Positions 27,610 to 34,128 of a stretch of 64,000 nucleotides of DNA are shown piece by piece. The notes under the pieces were generated by a model that worked only from the letters and a program-made list of their open reading frames with translations, made no database searches and was not told the origin of the DNA. The position numbers and the translations under genes are program-made. Position 1 is the stretch's first letter, and each line of letters starts with the position of its first letter. This stretch comes from Trichocoleus desertorum NBK24 (lineage in GTDB: Bacteria; Cyanobacteriota; Cyanobacteriia; FACHB-46), in assembly GCF_030409055.1 (NCBI RefSeq), contig NZ_CP116619.1:3697628-3761627 (forward strand). The letters run 5' to 3'.

Positions 27610-27945
27610 ATGAGTACGACAAAGTGCAAAGTAGCCATTGTGAGTGGTGCGATCGCGACGCTGAGCCTGTTCACCGTAGCAGTAAGCTCCGCATCAGCGA
27701 ATGAGCACAACTTAAATCAAAAGAAAGCGACGGCTGTAGACACAAAGCGTGAGTCGGTTACTCAGAAACCGCTGAATCAACCTGCTGTTCGGCAACAGCC
27801 AACGATGCAGCCAGCTAACGAGGGTGGGTGTAGCTGCTGTAAGAACATGATGGGCGGCAACATGTCAGGCATGATGAATCACAACAAAAAAGACATGACG
27901 CAACCCATGCCAGGAATGATGAGAATGCCAAAGTCGTCCCAGTAA
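27610..27945 (+). CDS. Secreted Met/Cys-rich protein, possible copper binder (111 aa)
   Basis: A signal peptide (VAIVSGAIATLSLFTVAVSSASA) ends near residue 30. The mature part has a polar, Gln-rich linker and then GGCSCCKNMMGGNMSGMMNH and MTQPMPGMMRMP. Methionine clusters with Cys and His are typical of periplasmic copper-binding proteins such as CopM-like or CusF-like chaperones. No copper pump or regulator gene is adjacent. Metal binding is inferred from composition alone; homology to a named family is not claimed. Confidence 0.65.
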   Translation: MSTTKCKVAIVSGAIATLSLFTVAVSSASANEHNLNQKKATAVDTKRESVTQKPLNQPAVRQQPTMQPANEGGCSCCKNMMGGNMSGMMNHNKKDMTQPMPGMMRMPKSSQ

Positions 27946-28009: not shown

Positions 28010-28867
28010 TTAGCTACTGGCAGGTAGATGCAACAGAGATAAAACACAGGGTTTGTCGCCTAACTGGATGGGCAGTGCTTCTACATAACAGTGAAGCGGG
28101 CCACAGCCAAAGTCTAGGGCTTCTGTACCTGTTTGAGGCTGTCCACTGTGAAACGCCTCGGCAATGAGGGAATCGTGGGGGATTGACTTGTTTTTGGGAA
28201 TGAACCCACTAGTCCAGCCTTGAGCCTTGGCTCGCCACCAAACGCGCAATTTCTTTTTGGGTTGTGGTTTCGTGGGGAGACAGCCTTGTGCTTCTCGACG
28301 GCTTAATGCTCGATGCCACATCACCACAGCGTAGGCTCCCGATTCATGTTGCACCATGCGGAGCAAGGTGGCGAGCAACGAGGTTTGGTAGAGATTTGCC
28401 AGAATTTGTCCGGTGCGGAGGGAGAAGCCGAGACTGCGGAGTTGGGGCAGAAACGAAGAGGTAGGCATTAACAACTCGGCAGCTCCGCGATCGCACAACT
28501 GCTCTTTTTGCTCAGCCTGCCAGGGCATCTGGGTGTTGGTGCCTAGCAATAACCGCTCCTGAGCATCAAACAACAACTCCATCAGCTCATGGCCTTCGGT
28601 GAAGCGTTGCCGCCCCAAGGGGTCATCTTCTTTAATCAGAATTAAGCCTGCATCACTATCGACCAGAATGCCTTGTTGATCAGCTAGCGGTGCCCGCAAA
28701 GGCGTAGGCATCCCGAATTCTTGGTAGATGCGTAAGAGATCGATCGGCGGTTCGTCGCTCAGCCCCACTTCTTGCCGCAGAAATTCGACATAGCGGAACA
28801 CATCTTGCTCAGTTTGCAGTAGTCCATGACGGGACAGGAAAGCTTGCCCAGGATGCCTGTACTGCAT
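28010..28867 (-). CDS. ImmA/IrrE-like protein with altered metal-binding motif (285 aa)
   Basis: Residues 20-150 have the ImmA/IrrE layout: IDLLRIYQEFGMP, GILVDSDAGLILIKEDD, then RQRFTEGHELMELLFD, and CDRGAAELLMP. In active members the helix reads H-E-x-x-H and is followed by E-x-E-A-N. Here the second His is Glu (HELME), and the later E-A-N region is L-C-D. Two of three zinc ligands seem lost, so it may sense or bind rather than cut. The C-terminal 100 residues are a separate domain with Lys-rich and Trp segments. It lies 35 bases downstream of the XRE gene, as in ImmR-ImmA and DdrO-IrrE systems. ATG at 28867 is chosen; GTG at 28885 is possible. Confidence 0.75.
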   Translation of the reverse strand: MQYRHPGQAFLSRHGLLQTEQDVFRYVEFLRQEVGLSDEPPIDLLRIYQEFGMPTPLRAPLADQQGILVDSDAGLILIKEDDPLGRQRFTEGHELMELLFDAQERLLLGTNTQMPWQAEQKEQLCDRGAAELLMPTSSFLPQLRSLGFSLRTGQILANLYQTSLLATLLRMVQHESGAYAVVMWHRALSRREAQGCLPTKPQPKKKLRVWWRAKAQGWTSGFIPKNKSIPHDSLIAEAFHSGQPQTGTEALDFGCGPLHCYVEALPIQLGDKPCVLSLLHLPASS

Positions 28868-28902
28868 GGAACCGTTCTGCCTCACTCACTGGATTACTGG
28901 CG

Positions 28903-29277
28903 CTACTTACCAACGGTCATTTTAATCACGTTATAGAGCAGTTCCCATTTTTCTGGAGTGGTGGGTTGCTGGCCTCGGTATTTGAGCCGCGCCAACATTA
29001 GCACATCATCCGGGGGGAGGTCTGCGGTTTTGGCAAACTCCGCCAAGCTGGACGGCAAATCTGCCATTGCCTCTAAGGTTCGCGTTTGTTCTTGCTTCAG
29101 CCCCAGCATCGAAGTGAGGCGTTCCATTACTTGCCAGGACAGATTGGTCGCCTGCCCACGCTCAATTTGCGACAGGTAGTTGCGGGAAATGCCTACCCGC
29201 TGAGCCAGTTCTTCTTGGCTGAGTTTTTCTTCGCGGCGGCGATCGCGCACCTTCTTGCCAAAGTCATCGGTTTCCAT
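28903..29277 (-). CDS. XRE-family transcriptional regulator (124 aa)
   Basis: The N-terminal helix-turn-helix is clear: FGKKVRDRRREEKLSQEELA, QRVGISRNYLSQIERGQATN. A C-terminal helical part with LPPDDVLMLARLKYRGQQPT, then TPEKWELLYNVIKMTVG, is probably for dimerisation or partner contact. It heads a two-gene unit with the ImmA/IrrE-like gene and is divergent from the coiled-coil cassette. The promoter region between has two palindromes, so it probably represses itself and perhaps the cassette. This is inference from layout. Confidence 0.88.
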   Translation of the reverse strand: METDDFGKKVRDRRREEKLSQEELAQRVGISRNYLSQIERGQATNLSWQVMERLTSMLGLKQEQTRTLEAMADLPSSLAEFAKTADLPPDDVLMLARLKYRGQQPTTPEKWELLYNVIKMTVGK

Positions 29278-29292
29278 TGCATTGACAGTTAG

Positions 29293-29329
29293 GACAAAAT
29301 TTTGACAACTATGGTTTGCAAATTTTGTC
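29293..29329. promoter_or_regulatory. Inverted-repeat operator candidate upstream of the XRE gene
   Basis: GACAAAATTT at 29293-29302 and AAATTTTGTC at 29320-29329 form a perfect 10-bp inverted repeat with 17 bases between. A GTTTGC motif lies inside and recurs at 29331. The distance to the XRE start is 16 bases, fitting autorepression. Confidence 0.55.
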
Positions 29330-29336
29330 TGTTTGC

Positions 29337-29365
29337 TTTACTTTTGCTGAAGTAGATGCCATAAT
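29337..29365 (+). promoter_or_regulatory. Candidate promoter of the coiled-coil cassette
   Basis: TTTACT at 29337-29342 and CATAAT at 29360-29365 with a 17-base spacer. The palindrome GTTTGCAAAC (29390-29399) and AAACTGCAGTTT (29382-29393) lie just downstream, where a bound repressor would block initiation or early elongation. Confidence 0.5.
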
Positions 29366-29381
29366 AGTGTTCAGGAAATGT

Positions 29382-29399
29382 AAACTGCAGTTTGCAAAC
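29382..29399. promoter_or_regulatory. Two overlapping palindromes, operator candidate 2
   Basis: AAACTGCAGTTT and GTTTGCAAAC overlap here. The GTTTGCAAA half-site also occurs at 29314-29322, within the first operator. Confidence 0.5.
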
Positions 29400-29577
29400 C
29401 TGATTCCACTCTAGCAGAAATTCCCCCAAAACATCCCCCGCCGCGAGTTCGAGTTAGTTCAAAACAAGTTCTTTCCAGATTCAGTGATTCACGAAGAAGG
29501 TTTATGTGGAGCGGGCAAAGCCTGCTTCATATAAACCCCACCACCAAGATTCAAGTTCTAGTTCCAGGAGATGTTTC

Positions 29578-30570
29578 ATGACCTCAGGTGCCGTCAAAGA
29601 CAGCAAAGCCAAGATTTTAGAAGCATTTCAACAGATTTTGATGGAGCGGCAAACCCGTGAGTCCAAGGTCGCCACCAAGGAAGAAGAAGCCGAGAAAGCC
29701 CAGAATCAACAAATTCTAGAAACCGCCTCGCAATACACTTCTGACAGCATTGTGCGGGGTTTGGCAGATCTGCAAATCGAATTTGGCAGCATCATCACTA
29801 ACTTATCCAGTCGCTTAAGCAGCGAAACGACCAAATTCGACGAGTTGAAGCGAGCGATCGCCTTTGAAACCCAACATTTCCAAGAACTTCAGCAAACTCG
29901 TGTCGTTGCCGATGCGCTGCACATCCTGACCCAAGAGCATCAAGAAAAACTCAAAGACCTAGAGCAGCAAGCCACCCGCGATCGCGAAACCCTTGAAAAA
30001 GAAATTACTGAAGCTCACAAAGCTTGGCAACAGGAGCAAGAAGAATTTGCAACGGCTCAAACCGAAAGCCAAGAACTGCTGACTCGCGAACGCCAACGCC
30101 AGGAAGAAGAGTACCAGTACGAGACCGAGCGATCGCGCACCATTGCCACTGACGATTACGAAGCCAAGCAACGCCAAATTGAGCGAGAACTGCGAGAAAC
30201 GGCTCAAGCCAAAGAAAATGATTGGTCAGAACGGGAACGCGTCTTGCAGGCAAACCAAACCCAGTTAGAAACCTATCGCCAAAAAGTCGAATCTTTCCCC
30301 ACAGAGCTAGAGGAAGCGATTAAGAAAGCGAGAGAAGAAGGCATTCGTGAAGTCAACCAAGACGCGAAAGTGAAAGCTGATTTGTTCGAGAAAGAATGGG
30401 AAGCAATCAAGCAATCCTACGAACTACAAATCCAATCGCTGGAAGCCAAAATTCAAAAACAAACGGAGCAAATTACCGAGATCTCTAATCAACTACAAGC
30501 CGCTATGCGCCAAGCTCAAGACCTCGCGATGCGTGCGTTTGAAAACTCCTCCAATCGCATGACTGCCTAA
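29578..30570 (+). CDS. Coiled-coil protein A of the paralogous pair (330 aa)
   Basis: AGGAG seven bases upstream selects the ATG at 29578 (MTSGAVKDSKAKILEAFQQI). The protein has no signal or membrane segment. Residues about 1-50 hold a short helix (KILEAFQQILMERQ), residues 55-120 a helical block (SIVRGLADLQIEFGSIITNL), and residues 120-320 a nearly uninterrupted charged coiled coil rich in Glu, Gln, Arg and Lys. ESFPTELEEAIKKAREEG and DAKVKADLFEKEW are repeated in the paralogue at 31438. Function unknown; it could form filaments or a scaffold. First gene of the cassette opposite the XRE regulator. Confidence 0.8.
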   Translation: MTSGAVKDSKAKILEAFQQILMERQTRESKVATKEEEAEKAQNQQILETASQYTSDSIVRGLADLQIEFGSIITNLSSRLSSETTKFDELKRAIAFETQHFQELQQTRVVADALHILTQEHQEKLKDLEQQATRDRETLEKEITEAHKAWQQEQEEFATAQTESQELLTRERQRQEEEYQYETERSRTIATDDYEAKQRQIERELRETAQAKENDWSERERVLQANQTQLETYRQKVESFPTELEEAIKKAREEGIREVNQDAKVKADLFEKEWEAIKQSYELQIQSLEAKIQKQTEQITEISNQLQAAMRQAQDLAMRAFENSSNRMTA

Positions 30571-30582
30571 GTATTACGCACC

Positions 30583-30654
30583 GTAGGGGCGAAGCATTCG
30601 ATAGCAGCATTGACTCAACGACCAAAGAATTGTGGTTGAATGCTTCGCCCCTAC
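30583..30654. repeat. MITE-like element with 17-bp terminal inverted repeats
   Basis: GTAGGGGCGAAGCATTC at 30583-30599 is perfectly inverted as GAATGCTTCGCCCCTAC at 30638-30654, with 38 bases between. I know GTAGGGGCGAAGCATTC ends as a common dispersed element in cyanobacterial genomes. It sits between coiled-coil gene A and the next gene. Confidence 0.8.
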
Positions 30655-30692
30655 ACAGATTTCTCCACAAGCCATTAATTTTGGTTCAATTC

Positions 30693-31265
30693 ATGAAGCA
30701 ATTACTTTGCGGTCATACCTCACATCGCAATGAGGCGATCGTAGAACATACCTTTTATGTTGGTGATGAACACCGTACTTATGCTTGGAATGGTCAATCT
30801 TCTTTGGATGTTCGCATTGATGCCGTAATTGACATAGCATCTGCCTATATTCATCGGGTGATCCACCAAAAACCAAAATTCCAAAAGCTTGAACTTTCCT
30901 CTCAAATGCTCAGAAATGGCGAAAAGTATTACTACTTTCTTGTAATGTTTGAGCCTCCCCGGTGGGACGATCCAGACGCAGAATTTTCTGGAATAACAGA
31001 GGCGATCGTGACTCTAGATTACAAAGTCATTGAGCCAGAAATCCATCAATTTACAACTGAAGCAGAGTACCAACAACATCGAGTTCTGCAACGGTTACAT
31101 CATCAGCTTGGAAGCCTTGAATCAGCTTTAGAACAGCAAGTTTCTCGTCTTTCCACGAACGTACTCTGGAGTTTAGAAACTGCTCTTTGGGATTTCAGTA
31201 GTGATGCTGATTTGACAGAGTGGCTAGAAACTTACACCACACAGGGCCGTAAGAGAAAGAAATAA
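30693..31265 (+). CDS. Unknown protein within the coiled-coil cassette (190 aa)
   Basis: Start at ATG 30693 (MKQLLCGHTSHRNEAIVEHT); the open frame before it runs through the MITE-like repeat and is not real. Residues 1-130 look alpha/beta (TFYVGDEHRTYAWNGQSSLD, YYYFLVMFEPPRWDDPD, EAIVTLDYKVI), and residues 130-190 are helical (HQLGSLESALEQQVSRL), ending in a basic GRKRKK tail. No family is recognised. Codon use is slightly more AT-rich than the neighbours. Its place between two paralogous coiled-coil genes suggests a linked function or an insertion. Confidence 0.6.
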   Translation: MKQLLCGHTSHRNEAIVEHTFYVGDEHRTYAWNGQSSLDVRIDAVIDIASAYIHRVIHQKPKFQKLELSSQMLRNGEKYYYFLVMFEPPRWDDPDAEFSGITEAIVTLDYKVIEPEIHQFTTEAEYQQHRVLQRLHHQLGSLESALEQQVSRLSTNVLWSLETALWDFSSDADLTEWLETYTTQGRKRKK

Positions 31266-31437
31266 GCGTCAGCGATCGCATCAACTCTTTGCTACAAATC
31301 ATTGGGCAGTTTCTGGAACTGAATGTGTAGCCTGTTGCAGGCACTCTCCACACGACAACACGCATCATTCAGCTCACAGTTAAGTTCCTAGGCATTGCCC
31401 TCACACTATCCAGTTTTTTTTACATTTAGAGGTTTTT

Positions 31438-32502
31438 ATGGTCCGCAGACCGAGTGAAAAGAACACGAAGGCGGAAATTCTTGCAGCTTTTGATGAATTG
31501 CTGAAAGAGAAGAAAGTATTGGAAACTCACGCGGCACAGGCAACAAAAGAGCGATCGCCAGAATCGAACCAGAAACCTGCGCTGAAAGTAACGGTCGTGC
31601 AACCAGAGTCACCGACGATGGCCTCAGTGTTGGAAGGATTGAGCAAACTGCAACTCAACTTTGGTGGGGCGGTCAGCGATCTCTCAGAAAAGCTGACGTT
31701 AGAAGCGGTGAAACTGCAAGAAGTTCGACAGGCTGTGACAACCGAAGTGCAGCAATTAGAAACGTTGCATGGCTTACGAGCTGATGATTCCAGTTTAGAA
31801 ACGCTGATTGAGCAGTATGGTACTAGCTTCAAAACCTTCAATGAAGAACTGGGTCAACGTCGCGAAACCCTAGAGCAGGAATTCTCGCAGGCGAAAAAGG
31901 TTTGGTTCAAGGAACAGGAAGAACATCGCCGCACCCTGAAAGAGCGGAATGAGACGCTGACCAAAACTCGCCAACGCGATACCAAAGAGTACACCTATAA
32001 CCTGACGCTGCAACGCAAGCTCGACACTGACGCCTATGAGCAAGCCCAAAAAGCGCTGTACCAAGAATTAGAAGAACTCCAGCGATCGCACGAAAAACAG
32101 TGGACTGAGCGAGAAACGGTGATCGCGGAACGGGAGAAACAGTTTGCCGAGCTGAGAGAAAAGGTGGAAGGCTTCCCGAAAGAGTTGGAGTCGGCGATCA
32201 AACGCGCCAAGGAAGAGGGCAAGGGCATCGCTCATCACCAAGCCAAGGTCAAAGCAGATTTGTATGCCAAAGACGTGGAAGGGAACAAGCGCAACTATGA
32301 ATTACGCATCCAATCCCTACAGGAGACCCTACAAAATCAGGAGACCCGGATTCATGCTCTCTCACAACAGCTTAGTGCTGCCCTCAAACAGGTTCAGGAT
32401 TTGGCAGTCAAAGCGATCGAAGGGGCCGCTAATGTCAGTTCCTTCCAAGCCATGCGCGAAATCGCGATCGAGCAAGCGAAGACTCAGACCAAGAACAAGT
32501 AA
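31438..32502 (+). CDS. Coiled-coil protein B of the paralogous pair (354 aa)
   Basis: AGAGG precedes the ATG at 31438. It has the same layout as the protein at 29578: an N-terminal AEILAAFDELLKEKK helix, SVLEGLSKLQLNFGGAVSDL block, a 200-residue coiled coil, and near-identical EGFPKELESAIKRAKEEG, QAKVKADLYAKD and YELRIQSL segments. The C-terminal 25 residues (AMREIAIEQAKTQTKNK) are extra. The two are clear paralogues from an old duplication and may form a heteromer. No signal peptide or membrane helix. Function unknown. Confidence 0.8.
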   Translation: MVRRPSEKNTKAEILAAFDELLKEKKVLETHAAQATKERSPESNQKPALKVTVVQPESPTMASVLEGLSKLQLNFGGAVSDLSEKLTLEAVKLQEVRQAVTTEVQQLETLHGLRADDSSLETLIEQYGTSFKTFNEELGQRRETLEQEFSQAKKVWFKEQEEHRRTLKERNETLTKTRQRDTKEYTYNLTLQRKLDTDAYEQAQKALYQELEELQRSHEKQWTERETVIAEREKQFAELREKVEGFPKELESAIKRAKEEGKGIAHHQAKVKADLYAKDVEGNKRNYELRIQSLQETLQNQETRIHALSQQLSAALKQVQDLAVKAIEGAANVSSFQAMREIAIEQAKTQTKNK

Positions 32503-32624
32503 CCACACCTCCATGTTCTACACGCTGTTGCTCCGTTGTTTGCGATCGCTCGCTAGTCAGTTTCCCGCTTCCTAACCCTGCGTCCCTGAGTGATTCAAGT
32601 TCTATCTCTAAAAAGGAGTTCACT

Positions 32625-32936
32625 ATGCAACCCATTCGTCAAGGCGATGTCATTCTGATTCCCGTTGAGTCTGCTGCTGAGATGGCAACCCAAGACGGGC
32701 AAAAACTGCCCCACCTCACCCTCGCCGAAGGAGAAGTCACTGGACACAGCCACCGGATCAGCACTGGAGAAGCCGAACTACGCGATCGCGAAGGCACACT
32801 GTATCTTTCGATCACCTCTGACTCTGCTACCCTCACCCACGAAGAACACAAACCCATTCAGGTTCCTCAAGGTAATTGGATTGTTCGCATTCAACGCCAA
32901 CACGAACCAGGCGATTGGAGATATGTAGAAGATTAA
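32625..32936 (+). CDS. Small protein with GHSH and HEEH motifs (103 aa)
   Basis: AAAAGGAG precedes the ATG. The protein is beta-rich: RQGDVILIPV, then LAEGEVTGHSHRIS, LYLSITSDSATLTHEEHKPI, and QVPQGNWIVRIQRQHEPGDW. I recall a widespread uncharacterised family with this pattern (Q-G-D-V..G-E-V-T-G-H-x-H..H-E-E-H-x-P-I), often beside DUF6745 genes, also in actinobacteria. The conserved His and Glu could bind a metal in a cupin-like fold; this is inference. The partner DUF6745-type gene follows 94 bases later. Confidence 0.72.
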   Translation: MQPIRQGDVILIPVESAAEMATQDGQKLPHLTLAEGEVTGHSHRISTGEAELRDREGTLYLSITSDSATLTHEEHKPIQVPQGNWIVRIQRQHEPGDWRYVED

Positions 32937-33030
32937 GGTTCTACTCCCCCTGATCTTTCTCACCTGGATTAGGGGCAGCGCTAGAACTTTGGGATTGATC
33001 AAAAAGGGCGATTGCCTATCTACTAAACTC

Positions 33031-34128
33031 ATGACGACCAAAATAGGCAAACTTACACCCGAACAAGAAACATTAATTCCGGTCTGTCGAGATAAGTGGC
33101 GACAAGTTGCGTTGTCTACCGAGAGAATCGATCGCGCGGTTGCCACAGAAGCAATTAAGACAGTTTATGCGGCAACCGCTCAACCCGCACCCCAGGTTTT
33201 GTTTTGCGAGAGTCCGTTGGCCGTACCGCAGGTTTTGACCCGTCTGTTGCAACAACAATTAAGTTCTGGCTTAGCTTGGGTGGTGGAGAGCTACAGCCCA
33301 GAACAACAGCGAGCAAAATTGCGATCGCGGCTTGGCAATCCACTGACTCGCCAACTGGAAGAACAACTACATTGGTTGGTGCGGCGACAGGTGGAAGAAC
33401 AGTTGAGTTGGCAAGTGCGATCGCAACTAGAGAGCCAACTTTGGCCCGAATCCTATGAACTGCAACTCTGGGAACAACTGCAACTCACCCCCCAATTGCA
33501 AGACTATTGGCATGATGGCCTGCGGCTAGAAACTTGGATGCGCAATGCCATCTGGCTGGATTTAGCAATTTCGGCTTTGGATAGTTCTTACGATCGCCAC
33601 AAGTGGTTGTCCTTCCAGATGTTGATCGAAGAGTGCGGTTGGTTGCTGCCTTACGAGAATGTTTGTATTGTCTGCGATCGCCCCCTAACTGTCAGCTTTG
33701 ACGACCTGGGCCGACTCCATGCCGAAGGAGAACCTGCGATCGCGTTTGCCGATGGGTTTAATGTCTATGCATATCAAGGGGTGCGTTTGCCAGAAGCATA
33801 TGGACAACTGCCTCCTGTTCTCTGGCGATCGCAGTGGTTGCTAGAAGAATTCAACTTTGAGCTGCGGCAAGTGTTGTTGCAAGGAATTGGGTATGAGCGA
33901 GTCAGCCAAGAACTAGAGGCGATCGCGATCGATACTTGGCGCGAATACACCTTGTTGGGGGTGGATGCCGAGATTGATGATGAGCCGATGTTGTTGCTCA
34001 AGATGACCTGTCCCAGTACGGGGTTAACTCACGTTGCCCGTGTGCCACCCGACTTTGATTCCGCTCAGGAAGCGATTCAATGGGTCAACTGGGATATTGA
34101 TCCAGCAGAATTTGCCGTCCAAACCTGA
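33031..34128 (+). CDS. DUF6745-type protein (365 aa)
   Basis: Start at ATG 33031 (MTTKIGKLTPEQETLIPVCR); the frame before it lacks family sequence. The N-terminal part has KWRQVALSTERIDRAVATEA and VLFCESPLAVPQVL. A middle part is rich in repeated QLEEQLHWLVRRQVEEQLSW-type units. GEPAIAFADGFNVYAYQGVR with LPE is the DUF6745 hallmark as I remember it (H-x-x-G-P-A-x-x-x-x-D-G-x-x-x-Y). The C-terminus has LLKMTCPSTGLTHVARVPP. No catalytic motif is evident. Last gene of the cassette, ending one base from a convergent secreted-protein gene. Confidence 0.72.
   Translation: MTTKIGKLTPEQETLIPVCRDKWRQVALSTERIDRAVATEAIKTVYAATAQPAPQVLFCESPLAVPQVLTRLLQQQLSSGLAWVVESYSPEQQRAKLRSRLGNPLTRQLEEQLHWLVRRQVEEQLSWQVRSQLESQLWPESYELQLWEQLQLTPQLQDYWHDGLRLETWMRNAIWLDLAISALDSSYDRHKWLSFQMLIEECGWLLPYENVCIVCDRPLTVSFDDLGRLHAEGEPAIAFADGFNVYAYQGVRLPEAYGQLPPVLWRSQWLLEEFNFELRQVLLQGIGYERVSQELEAIAIDTWREYTLLGVDAEIDDEPMLLLKMTCPSTGLTHVARVPPDFDSAQEAIQWVNWDIDPAEFAVQT

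What the first reader, a model, noticed from the sequence alone, without database searches (positions are those of the whole stretch)
28010..34128. Candidate undescribed cassette: XRE / ImmA-like regulators opposite two coiled-coil paralogues and a DUF6745 pair
Five same-strand genes of unknown function (coiled-coil A, a unique 190-aa protein, coiled-coil B, a GHSH/HEEH small protein, a DUF6745-type protein) diverge from a regulatory XRE plus ImmA/IrrE-like pair. XRE-ImmA pairs typically control mobile, phage-defence or damage-inducible genes by sensing and proteolysis. Filament-forming coiled coils with a dedicated partner set suggest a structural or stress system. Function is inferred from layout only.
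Basis: partly seen in the sequence, partly recalled or inferred. Interest (0 to 1): 0.85.

Follow-up and report, generated by a model that had tools for sequence, protein, structure and literature searches.

The report
Damage-switch control of cyanobacterial filament proteins
Two tandem genes for filament-forming coiled-coil proteins, relatives of the Anabaena pair ZicK and ZacK, sit behind a repressor and peptidase-like pair resembling the DNA-damage switch of Deinococcus, and in most other cyanobacteria the same promoter carries an SOS (LexA)-type site instead, so these cell-shape filaments may be built in response to DNA damage.

Summary
The genes are real, but the cassette is a composite. 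(1) Core: coiled-coil A and B are an ancient tandem pair, adjacent in 76 of 77 usable cyanobacterial loci. In Nostocales they lie between phoU-sphS-sphR and hisA, the position of Anabaena alr4504/alr4505 (ZicK/ZacK, heteropolymer-forming proteins). (2) Switch: the divergent XRE/M78 pair is closest to DdrO/PprI(IrrE) and CapH/CapP. The XRE keeps DdrO's Arg-Gly cleavage-loop motif; the M78 protein has an invariant HExxE instead of HExxH. (3) A dyad operator, TGCAAACTRYAGTTTGCA, occurs in two copies around the pair's promoter. It persists in Pantanalinema, where the XRE/M78 pair is about 100 kb or more away, so regulation is strongly supported. (4) In lineages without the switch, 62 of 70 pair promoters carry a LexA-box-like site (at most 1 mismatch; about 6 expected). 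(5) GHSH-DUF6745 is a separate two-gene unit, also in Microcystis phages; the 190-aa DUF4351 gene is a genus-level insertion. Best reading: a stress, probably DNA-damage, inducible ZicK/ZacK-type heteropolymer whose LexA control was replaced by a PprI/DdrO-like switch. The damage signal and the chemistry of HExxE are untested. New variant of a known kind.

The parts
28010..28867 (-). M78 (ImmA/IrrE-like) protein, PprI/CapP-like, with HELME in place of HExxH
   Evidence: Pfam PF06114 3.2e-9; PADLOC capP 2.7e-23; only PDB sequence relatives with E < 0.05 are IrrE/PprI and CapP; model aligns to PprI, Z 8.7; HExxE invariant in homologues
28903..29277 (-). XRE repressor, DdrO/CapH-like, with the RGQQP loop aligned to the DdrO cleavage-site loop
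29303..29320 (.). Operator O1, TGACAACTATGGTTTGCA
   Evidence: shared motif of the intergenic regions
29337..29365 (+). Predicted sigma-70-type promoter of the coiled-coil pair: -35 TTTACT, 17-bp spacer, -10 CATAAT
   Evidence: read from sequence and from aligned promoters in homologous loci; not measured
29379..29396 (.). Operator O2, TGTAAACTGCAGTTTGCA, 1 mismatch from the dyad consensus
   Evidence: the best genome-wide match
29578..30570 (+). Coiled-coil A, ZicK-like (first gene of the conserved pair)
30581..30654 (.). Inverted repeat (GTAGGGGCGAAGCATTCG ... TGAATGCTTCGCCCCTAC), mobile-repeat-like
   Evidence: sequence, coordinates
30693..31265 (+). DUF4351-domain protein, insertion between A and B found only in the genus
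   Evidence: Pfam PF14261; seen in L017 and L021, absent from other pair loci
31438..32502 (+). Coiled-coil B, ZacK-like (second gene of the conserved pair)
32625..32936 (+). GHSH/HEEH small protein, accessory, partner of DUF6745
   Evidence: phrog_27831 2.2e-12; next to DUF6745 in many genomes and in Microcystis phages
33031..34128 (+). DUF6745 protein, accessory
   Evidence: Pfam PF20530; phrog_31813 1.7e-32

Best explanation
The locus is a stress-inducible operon for a ZicK/ZacK-type heteropolymer. The XRE protein represses the promoter of the coiled-coil pair by binding two copies of an 18-bp dyad, one upstream of the -35 and one just after the -10. The M78 protein, built like PprI/IrrE and CapP (peptidase-like domain, HTH, GAF-like sensor), senses a signal that by homology is single-stranded DNA from DNA damage, and removes the XRE repressor by cleaving it at the conserved R-G loop or by blocking its dimerisation. 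The two coiled coils are then made together and co-assemble into filaments that support cell or trichome shape. In most other cyanobacteria the same promoter position holds a LexA-box-like site, so the switch probably took over an SOS-controlled gene pair. GHSH-DUF6745, or in other lineages a KTSC gene, is accessory cargo downstream. Shown from sequence: the pair, the shared operator, XRE/M78 linkage, the unlinked operator, the LexA-like boxes. Inferred: repressor binding, the damage signal, cleavage despite HExxE, filament formation in this species, the role of the accessory genes.
For: A-B pair adjacent in 76 of 77 usable loci and in all 19 strongly matching class genomes; synteny phoU-sphS-sphR / A-B / hisA in Nostocales and all4501-all4503 in Anabaena; ZicK/ZacK form interdependent heteropolymers. 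Operator shared far above shuffles, kept at the pair's promoter when XRE/M78 is unlinked, best genome-wide match at this locus. Co-occurrence of pair and M78: 8 genomes against 1.6 expected, 7 of 8 divergent neighbours. XRE closest to DdrO with the R-G loop invariant; M78 closest to PprI and CapP, both activated by ssDNA. LexA-like boxes in 62 of 70 switch-less promoters against about 6 expected. Anabaena Alr4505 and Alr4504 rise 20-fold and 4.35-fold under BMAA stress.
Against: HExxE replaces the HExxH metal motif in all homologues, so protease activity is not assured. Zick/zacK mutants are described under normal growth, not damage. The common Nostocales box ends in ATACT and differs from lexA's own box. 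In the window the LexA box is no longer recognisable. Some XRE/M78 pairs exist without coiled coils. Equating A/B with Alr4504/Alr4505 rests on synteny and memory, not on a direct sequence comparison.
Confidence: 0.62

Rival explanations
1. The switch controls the coiled-coil pair, but the signal is not DNA damage (for example redox, metal, nitrogen status or a metabolite bound by the GAF-like domain), and the M78 protein is a non-proteolytic anti-repressor.
For: HExxE is invariant; repressor release without cleavage has been proposed for XRE-IrrE pairs, and the Anabaena XRE NsrX, paired with an IrrE-like protein, acts on nitrogen genes; BMAA induction of Alr4505 was read as NtcA-linked.
Against: The only PDB relatives of the M78 protein with E < 0.05 are the ssDNA-activated PprI and CapP; the cleavage-loop R-G is invariant in XRE; LexA-like boxes stand at the same promoter elsewhere.
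Confidence: 0.25
2. The XRE/M78 pair regulates only itself; its position opposite the coiled coils is inherited hitch-hiking.
For: Dyads or partial dyads also lie upstream of solitary XRE/M78 pairs, and the coiled coils decay next to intact XRE/M78 in G001 and G151.
Against: In Pantanalinema the operator stays at the coiled-coil promoter although XRE/M78 is on another contig; two copies bracket a promoter that faces A.
Confidence: 0.06
3. An anti-phage or abortive-infection cassette in which CapH/CapP-like regulators control a filament-forming effector.
For: PADLOC capP 2.7e-23 and capH 5.4e-11; GHSH, DUF6745 and a distant coiled-coil relative occur in phages.
Against: No known effector or defence gene among the seven; in Nostocales the pair sits in a conserved housekeeping context between sphSR-phoU and hisA; ZicK/ZacK are shape proteins.
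Confidence: 0.05

Closest known systems
ZicK/ZacK (Alr4504/Alr4505, locus tags from memory) of Anabaena sp. PCC 7120
   Same: Tandem pair of coiled-coil-rich proteins; Nostocales homologues of A and B lie beside sphR-sphS-phoU as alr4504/alr4505 do; ZicK/ZacK are interdependent heteropolymers
   Different: In the window the pair stands behind an XRE/M78 switch with operators, has a DUF4351 gene between A and B and GHSH-DUF6745 behind; polymerisation untested here
PprI(IrrE)/DdrO radiation-response switch of Deinococcus
   Same: XRE profile aligns to DdrO over nearly full length, with the cleavage-loop R-G conserved; M78 protein has the PprI domain order and best structural match
   Different: HExxE instead of HExxH; local operator TGCAAACTRYAGTTTGCA rather than the RDRM regulon; the target is a coiled-coil pair, not DNA-repair genes
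CapH/CapP controllers of CBASS and other immune operons
   Same: Repressor plus M78 pair opposite one adjacent operon; PADLOC capP 2.7e-23, capH 5.4e-11
   Different: No CBASS or other immune gene here; HExxE; weaker match to the CapP structure than to PprI
NsrX (Alr1976)-Alr1977 of Anabaena
   Same: Cyanobacterial XRE followed by an IrrE-like protein
   Different: Reported targets are nitrogen-metabolism and heterocyst genes; not compared by sequence here
LexA (SOS) regulon of cyanobacteria
   Same: Promoters of the pair in switch-less lineages carry LexA-box-like sites
   Different: No recognisable LexA box at the window's own promoter; binding untested

Membership tests
ZicK/ZacK pair | Two adjacent coiled-coil-rich genes of separate A and B clades | tested here: met
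   76 of 77 usable loci; A clade 0.993, B clade 0.673
ZicK/ZacK pair | Locus equivalent to alr4504/alr4505 (beside all4501-all4503) | tested here: met
   Met for Nostocales homologues by gene order; the window itself lies in another context; no direct comparison with the Anabaena proteins was made
ZicK/ZacK pair | Interdependent heteropolymer formation | not testable with these tools
   needs co-expression or purified proteins
PprI/IrrE and CapP peptidases | HExxH metal motif | tested here: not met
   HEL[MLIV]E in all strong homologues; therefore called PprI/CapP-like, not filed as a member
PprI/IrrE and CapP peptidases | Peptidase-like, HTH and GAF-like domains in this order | tested here: met
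   Sequence alignment to IrrE over residues 65-273; low-confidence model, Z 8.7 to PprI with 4.1 A over 167 residues
PprI/IrrE and CapP peptidases | Activation by ssDNA | not testable with these tools
   known for PprI and CapP
DdrO repressors | N-terminal HTH plus C-terminal domain with the cleavage-site loop R-G | tested here: met
   6jq1 2.8e-10 over positions 5-116; R101-G102 invariant
DdrO repressors | Control of a DNA-repair regulon through RDRM sites | tested here: not met
   The shared operator is a different dyad, and the genome scan at up to 2 mismatches gave only this promoter and one other place
CapH/CapP controllers | Adjacent CBASS or other known immune operon | tested here: not met
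   No known immune effector among the seven proteins in the PADLOC scan
LexA regulon (pair promoters of switch-less lineages) | RGTACNNNDGTWCB box at the promoter | tested here: met
   Strict consensus in 27 of 70; symmetric form in 30 of 70 and with 1 mismatch in 32 more; background about 1 and 5 of 70; LexA binding untested
LexA regulon (window promoter) | RGTACNNNDGTWCB box at the promoter | tested here: not met
   Best match in the window's intergenic region has 3 mismatches

The most novel reading that the evidence does not exclude
Cyanobacteria carry a DNA-damage-inducible, intermediate-filament-like heteropolymer. Its promoter is ancestrally a LexA/SOS target, and in one lineage LexA was replaced by a PprI/DdrO-like switch whose peptidase-like sensor works with an unusual HExxE site.
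Probability: 0.45. Interest if true: 0.75.

Novelty: new variant of a known kind. Interest (0 to 1): 0.62.

Why it matters
ZicK/ZacK are known as shape proteins. A damage-responsive promoter would link a bacterial intermediate-filament-like system to genome stress and make its function directly testable (mitomycin C or UV induction, shape under damage). It would also be a concrete case of one ssDNA-sensing repressor system replacing another at the same promoter, and a PprI-like family in which a metal ligand has changed and yet stays conserved. DUF6745 and GHSH gain a genomic context and a phage link.

Tried and rejected
A viral-contig scan with the coiled-coil alignment found no relative, though Bacillus phage G gp268 is a distant full-length one. 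The GHSH fold search gave no PDB match with E <= 0.001. No PDB sequence relative of the coiled coils. No paper in the held library mentions DUF6745, and the primary ZicK/ZacK paper is not held. NtcA as reader of the LexA-like box was set aside because the half-sites are 6 bases apart, not the 8 of GTAN8TAC (own knowledge). The phage-defence reading was set aside for lack of effectors and because of the conserved housekeeping context. Pair loci of G024, G183 and G051 carry neither box but a third dyad type; not pursued.

Full report
What is there. All seven reported genes exist, with corrected starts: an M78 peptidase-like gene (28010-28867, minus), an XRE repressor gene (28903-29277, minus), coiled-coil A (29578-30570), a DUF4351 gene (30693-31265), coiled-coil B (31438-32502), a small GHSH/HEEH gene (32625-32936) and a DUF6745 gene (33031-34128). 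The window lies in a single-contig 5.46-Mb genome; the named-genome relatives of the pair are all cyanobacterial.

The core is the coiled-coil pair. Of 80 named-genome loci fetched with an alignment of both proteins, three are cut short by the contig end; 76 of the other 77 have A directly before B. The 80 are the best of 308 matches, so they lean towards close relatives. In 194 evenly drawn genomes of the class, 19 have strong matches, and every one has exactly two adjacent copies (in G001 they are broken). A and B form separate clades when rooted with phage G gp268 (A 0.993, B 0.673), so the duplication predates the sampled lineages. In Nostocales the order is phoU, sphS, sphR on one strand, A and B on the other, then hisA. 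In Anabaena PCC 7120 all4501-all4503 are phoU/sphS/sphR, which places alr4504/alr4505 exactly where A and B lie. From memory these are ZicK and ZacK; the library confirms that ZicK and ZacK are interdependent heteropolymer-forming proteins linked to trichome shape and the elongasome, but not the locus tags.

The switch. The XRE profile's best PDB match is 6jq1 (2.8e-10), which by sequence and own knowledge is the DdrO of D. geothermalis; two DdrOC structures also align over nearly full length. The aligned loop reads ELRGKRP in 6jq1 and KYRGQQP here. Arg118 of that DdrO loop is required for ssDNA-dependent cleavage by PprI; the matching R101 and the following G102 are invariant in nine homologues. 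The M78 protein's only PDB relatives with E < 0.05 are IrrE/PprI and CapP. Its model is of low confidence (pLDDT 63.7) but aligns best to PprI at Z 8.7 and to CapP at Z 6.0. It differs from both in one strict way: HEL[MLIV]E replaces HExxH in all 16 genomes with a strong match, while a distant M78 protein read by the same pattern has HELGH. It is therefore described as PprI/CapP-like and not filed as a member.

The operator. Intergenic regions of 16 XRE/M78 loci (two near-identical genus copies left out) share TGCAAACTRYAGTTTGCA far above shuffles: the 10-mer AACTACAGTT is in 10 of 16, against a shuffled maximum of 2 for any 10-mer. Two copies bracket a promoter that faces coiled-coil A. In this genome only two places lie within two mismatches of the dyad, the better one being O2, so the switch looks local. 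The strongest test is Pantanalinema (G072/L026): its XRE/M78 pair lies on another contig, about 100 kb or more from the coiled-coil pair, yet the coiled-coil promoter keeps O1 and a degenerate O2. In Microseira both half-sites changed together (TGCCAACT...AGTTGGCA). Across 194 genomes the pair occurs in 19, the M78 protein in 16 and both in 8, against 1.6 expected if independent (not corrected for phylogeny); seven of the eight are divergent neighbours.

LexA. In 70 pair promoters from loci without the switch, the best match to the symmetric LexA-box form has no mismatch in 30 and one in 32; random windows of the same loci give about 1 and 5. In most promoters examined the box sits just after the -10. 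Among 11 pair-bearing class genomes without the switch, 5 of 6 with a full LexA have the box and 0 of 5 without one have it; a one-sided exact test by hand gives 0.013, but five of the six are one family. Several switch-type promoters keep AGTACACATGAACT or a close form at the same position, which suggests that the XRE operator was added beside a decaying LexA box. In the window itself the box is no longer recognisable. The caveat is that the common Nostocales form ends in ATACT and differs from the lexA gene's own AGTACTAATGTTCT.

Accessory genes. GHSH and DUF6745 occur together in many cyanobacterial loci without coiled coils and as neighbours in Microcystis phage Ma-LMM01, near DNA polymerase and uracil-DNA glycosylase genes. 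They follow the pair in the window, in its genus-mate G002 (where DUF6745 is split) and in Pantanalinema; in family f11 DUF6745 follows the pair (G012) or stands alone opposite XRE/M78 (G069, G080). Elsewhere a KTSC-domain gene takes this place. The downstream slot is variable cargo. The DUF4351 gene between A and B was seen only in the genus.

Decay. In G001 the coiled coils are broken while XRE and M78 remain intact; G151 has only fragments. The pair can therefore be lost while the switch stays.

Mechanism and certainty. Repression of the pair by XRE is strongly supported by sequence. A ZicK/ZacK-type heteropolymer product is likely. A DNA-damage signal is inferred from three hints: homology to PprI and CapP, which ssDNA activates; LexA-like boxes at the same promoter in other lineages; and strong induction of the Anabaena proteins under BMAA stress. 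Whether the HExxE protein cleaves its repressor or only displaces it is open; release without cleavage has been proposed for XRE-IrrE pairs.

Noticed in passing
L023:5995-7023 (Bacillus phage G gp268): Full-length distant relative (28% identity) of the coiled-coil pair in a jumbo Bacillus phage, next to an SASP-like gene and near an RNA ligase gene.
   Followed up: partly
L022:9300-9600 and L019:8900-9200: Pair promoters with a third dyad type (GTTGATTTTTAAATCAAC-like) in lineages with neither the XRE/M78 switch nor a full LexA; a different XRE gene lies opposite in L022.
   Followed up: no
L211:3968-5499 (Microcystis phage Ma-LMM01 gp175-gp174): GHSH and DUF6745 homologues side by side in a phage replication region, beside a uracil-DNA glycosylase gene.
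   Followed up: partly
L018:6914-7369, L024:11015-11452 and similar loci: A KTSC-domain protein of about 145 aa with an extra N-terminal region follows the pair in most switch-type loci and was not found in LexA-type loci.
   Followed up: partly
L102: Fischerella muscicola PCC 7414 locus with coiled-coil B but no adjacent A, the only exception among usable loci.
   Followed up: no
window 27610-27945: Small secreted-looking protein with a CSCC motif and a Met/His-rich tail (possible metal binder) beside the M78 gene, conserved in the genus.
   Followed up: no
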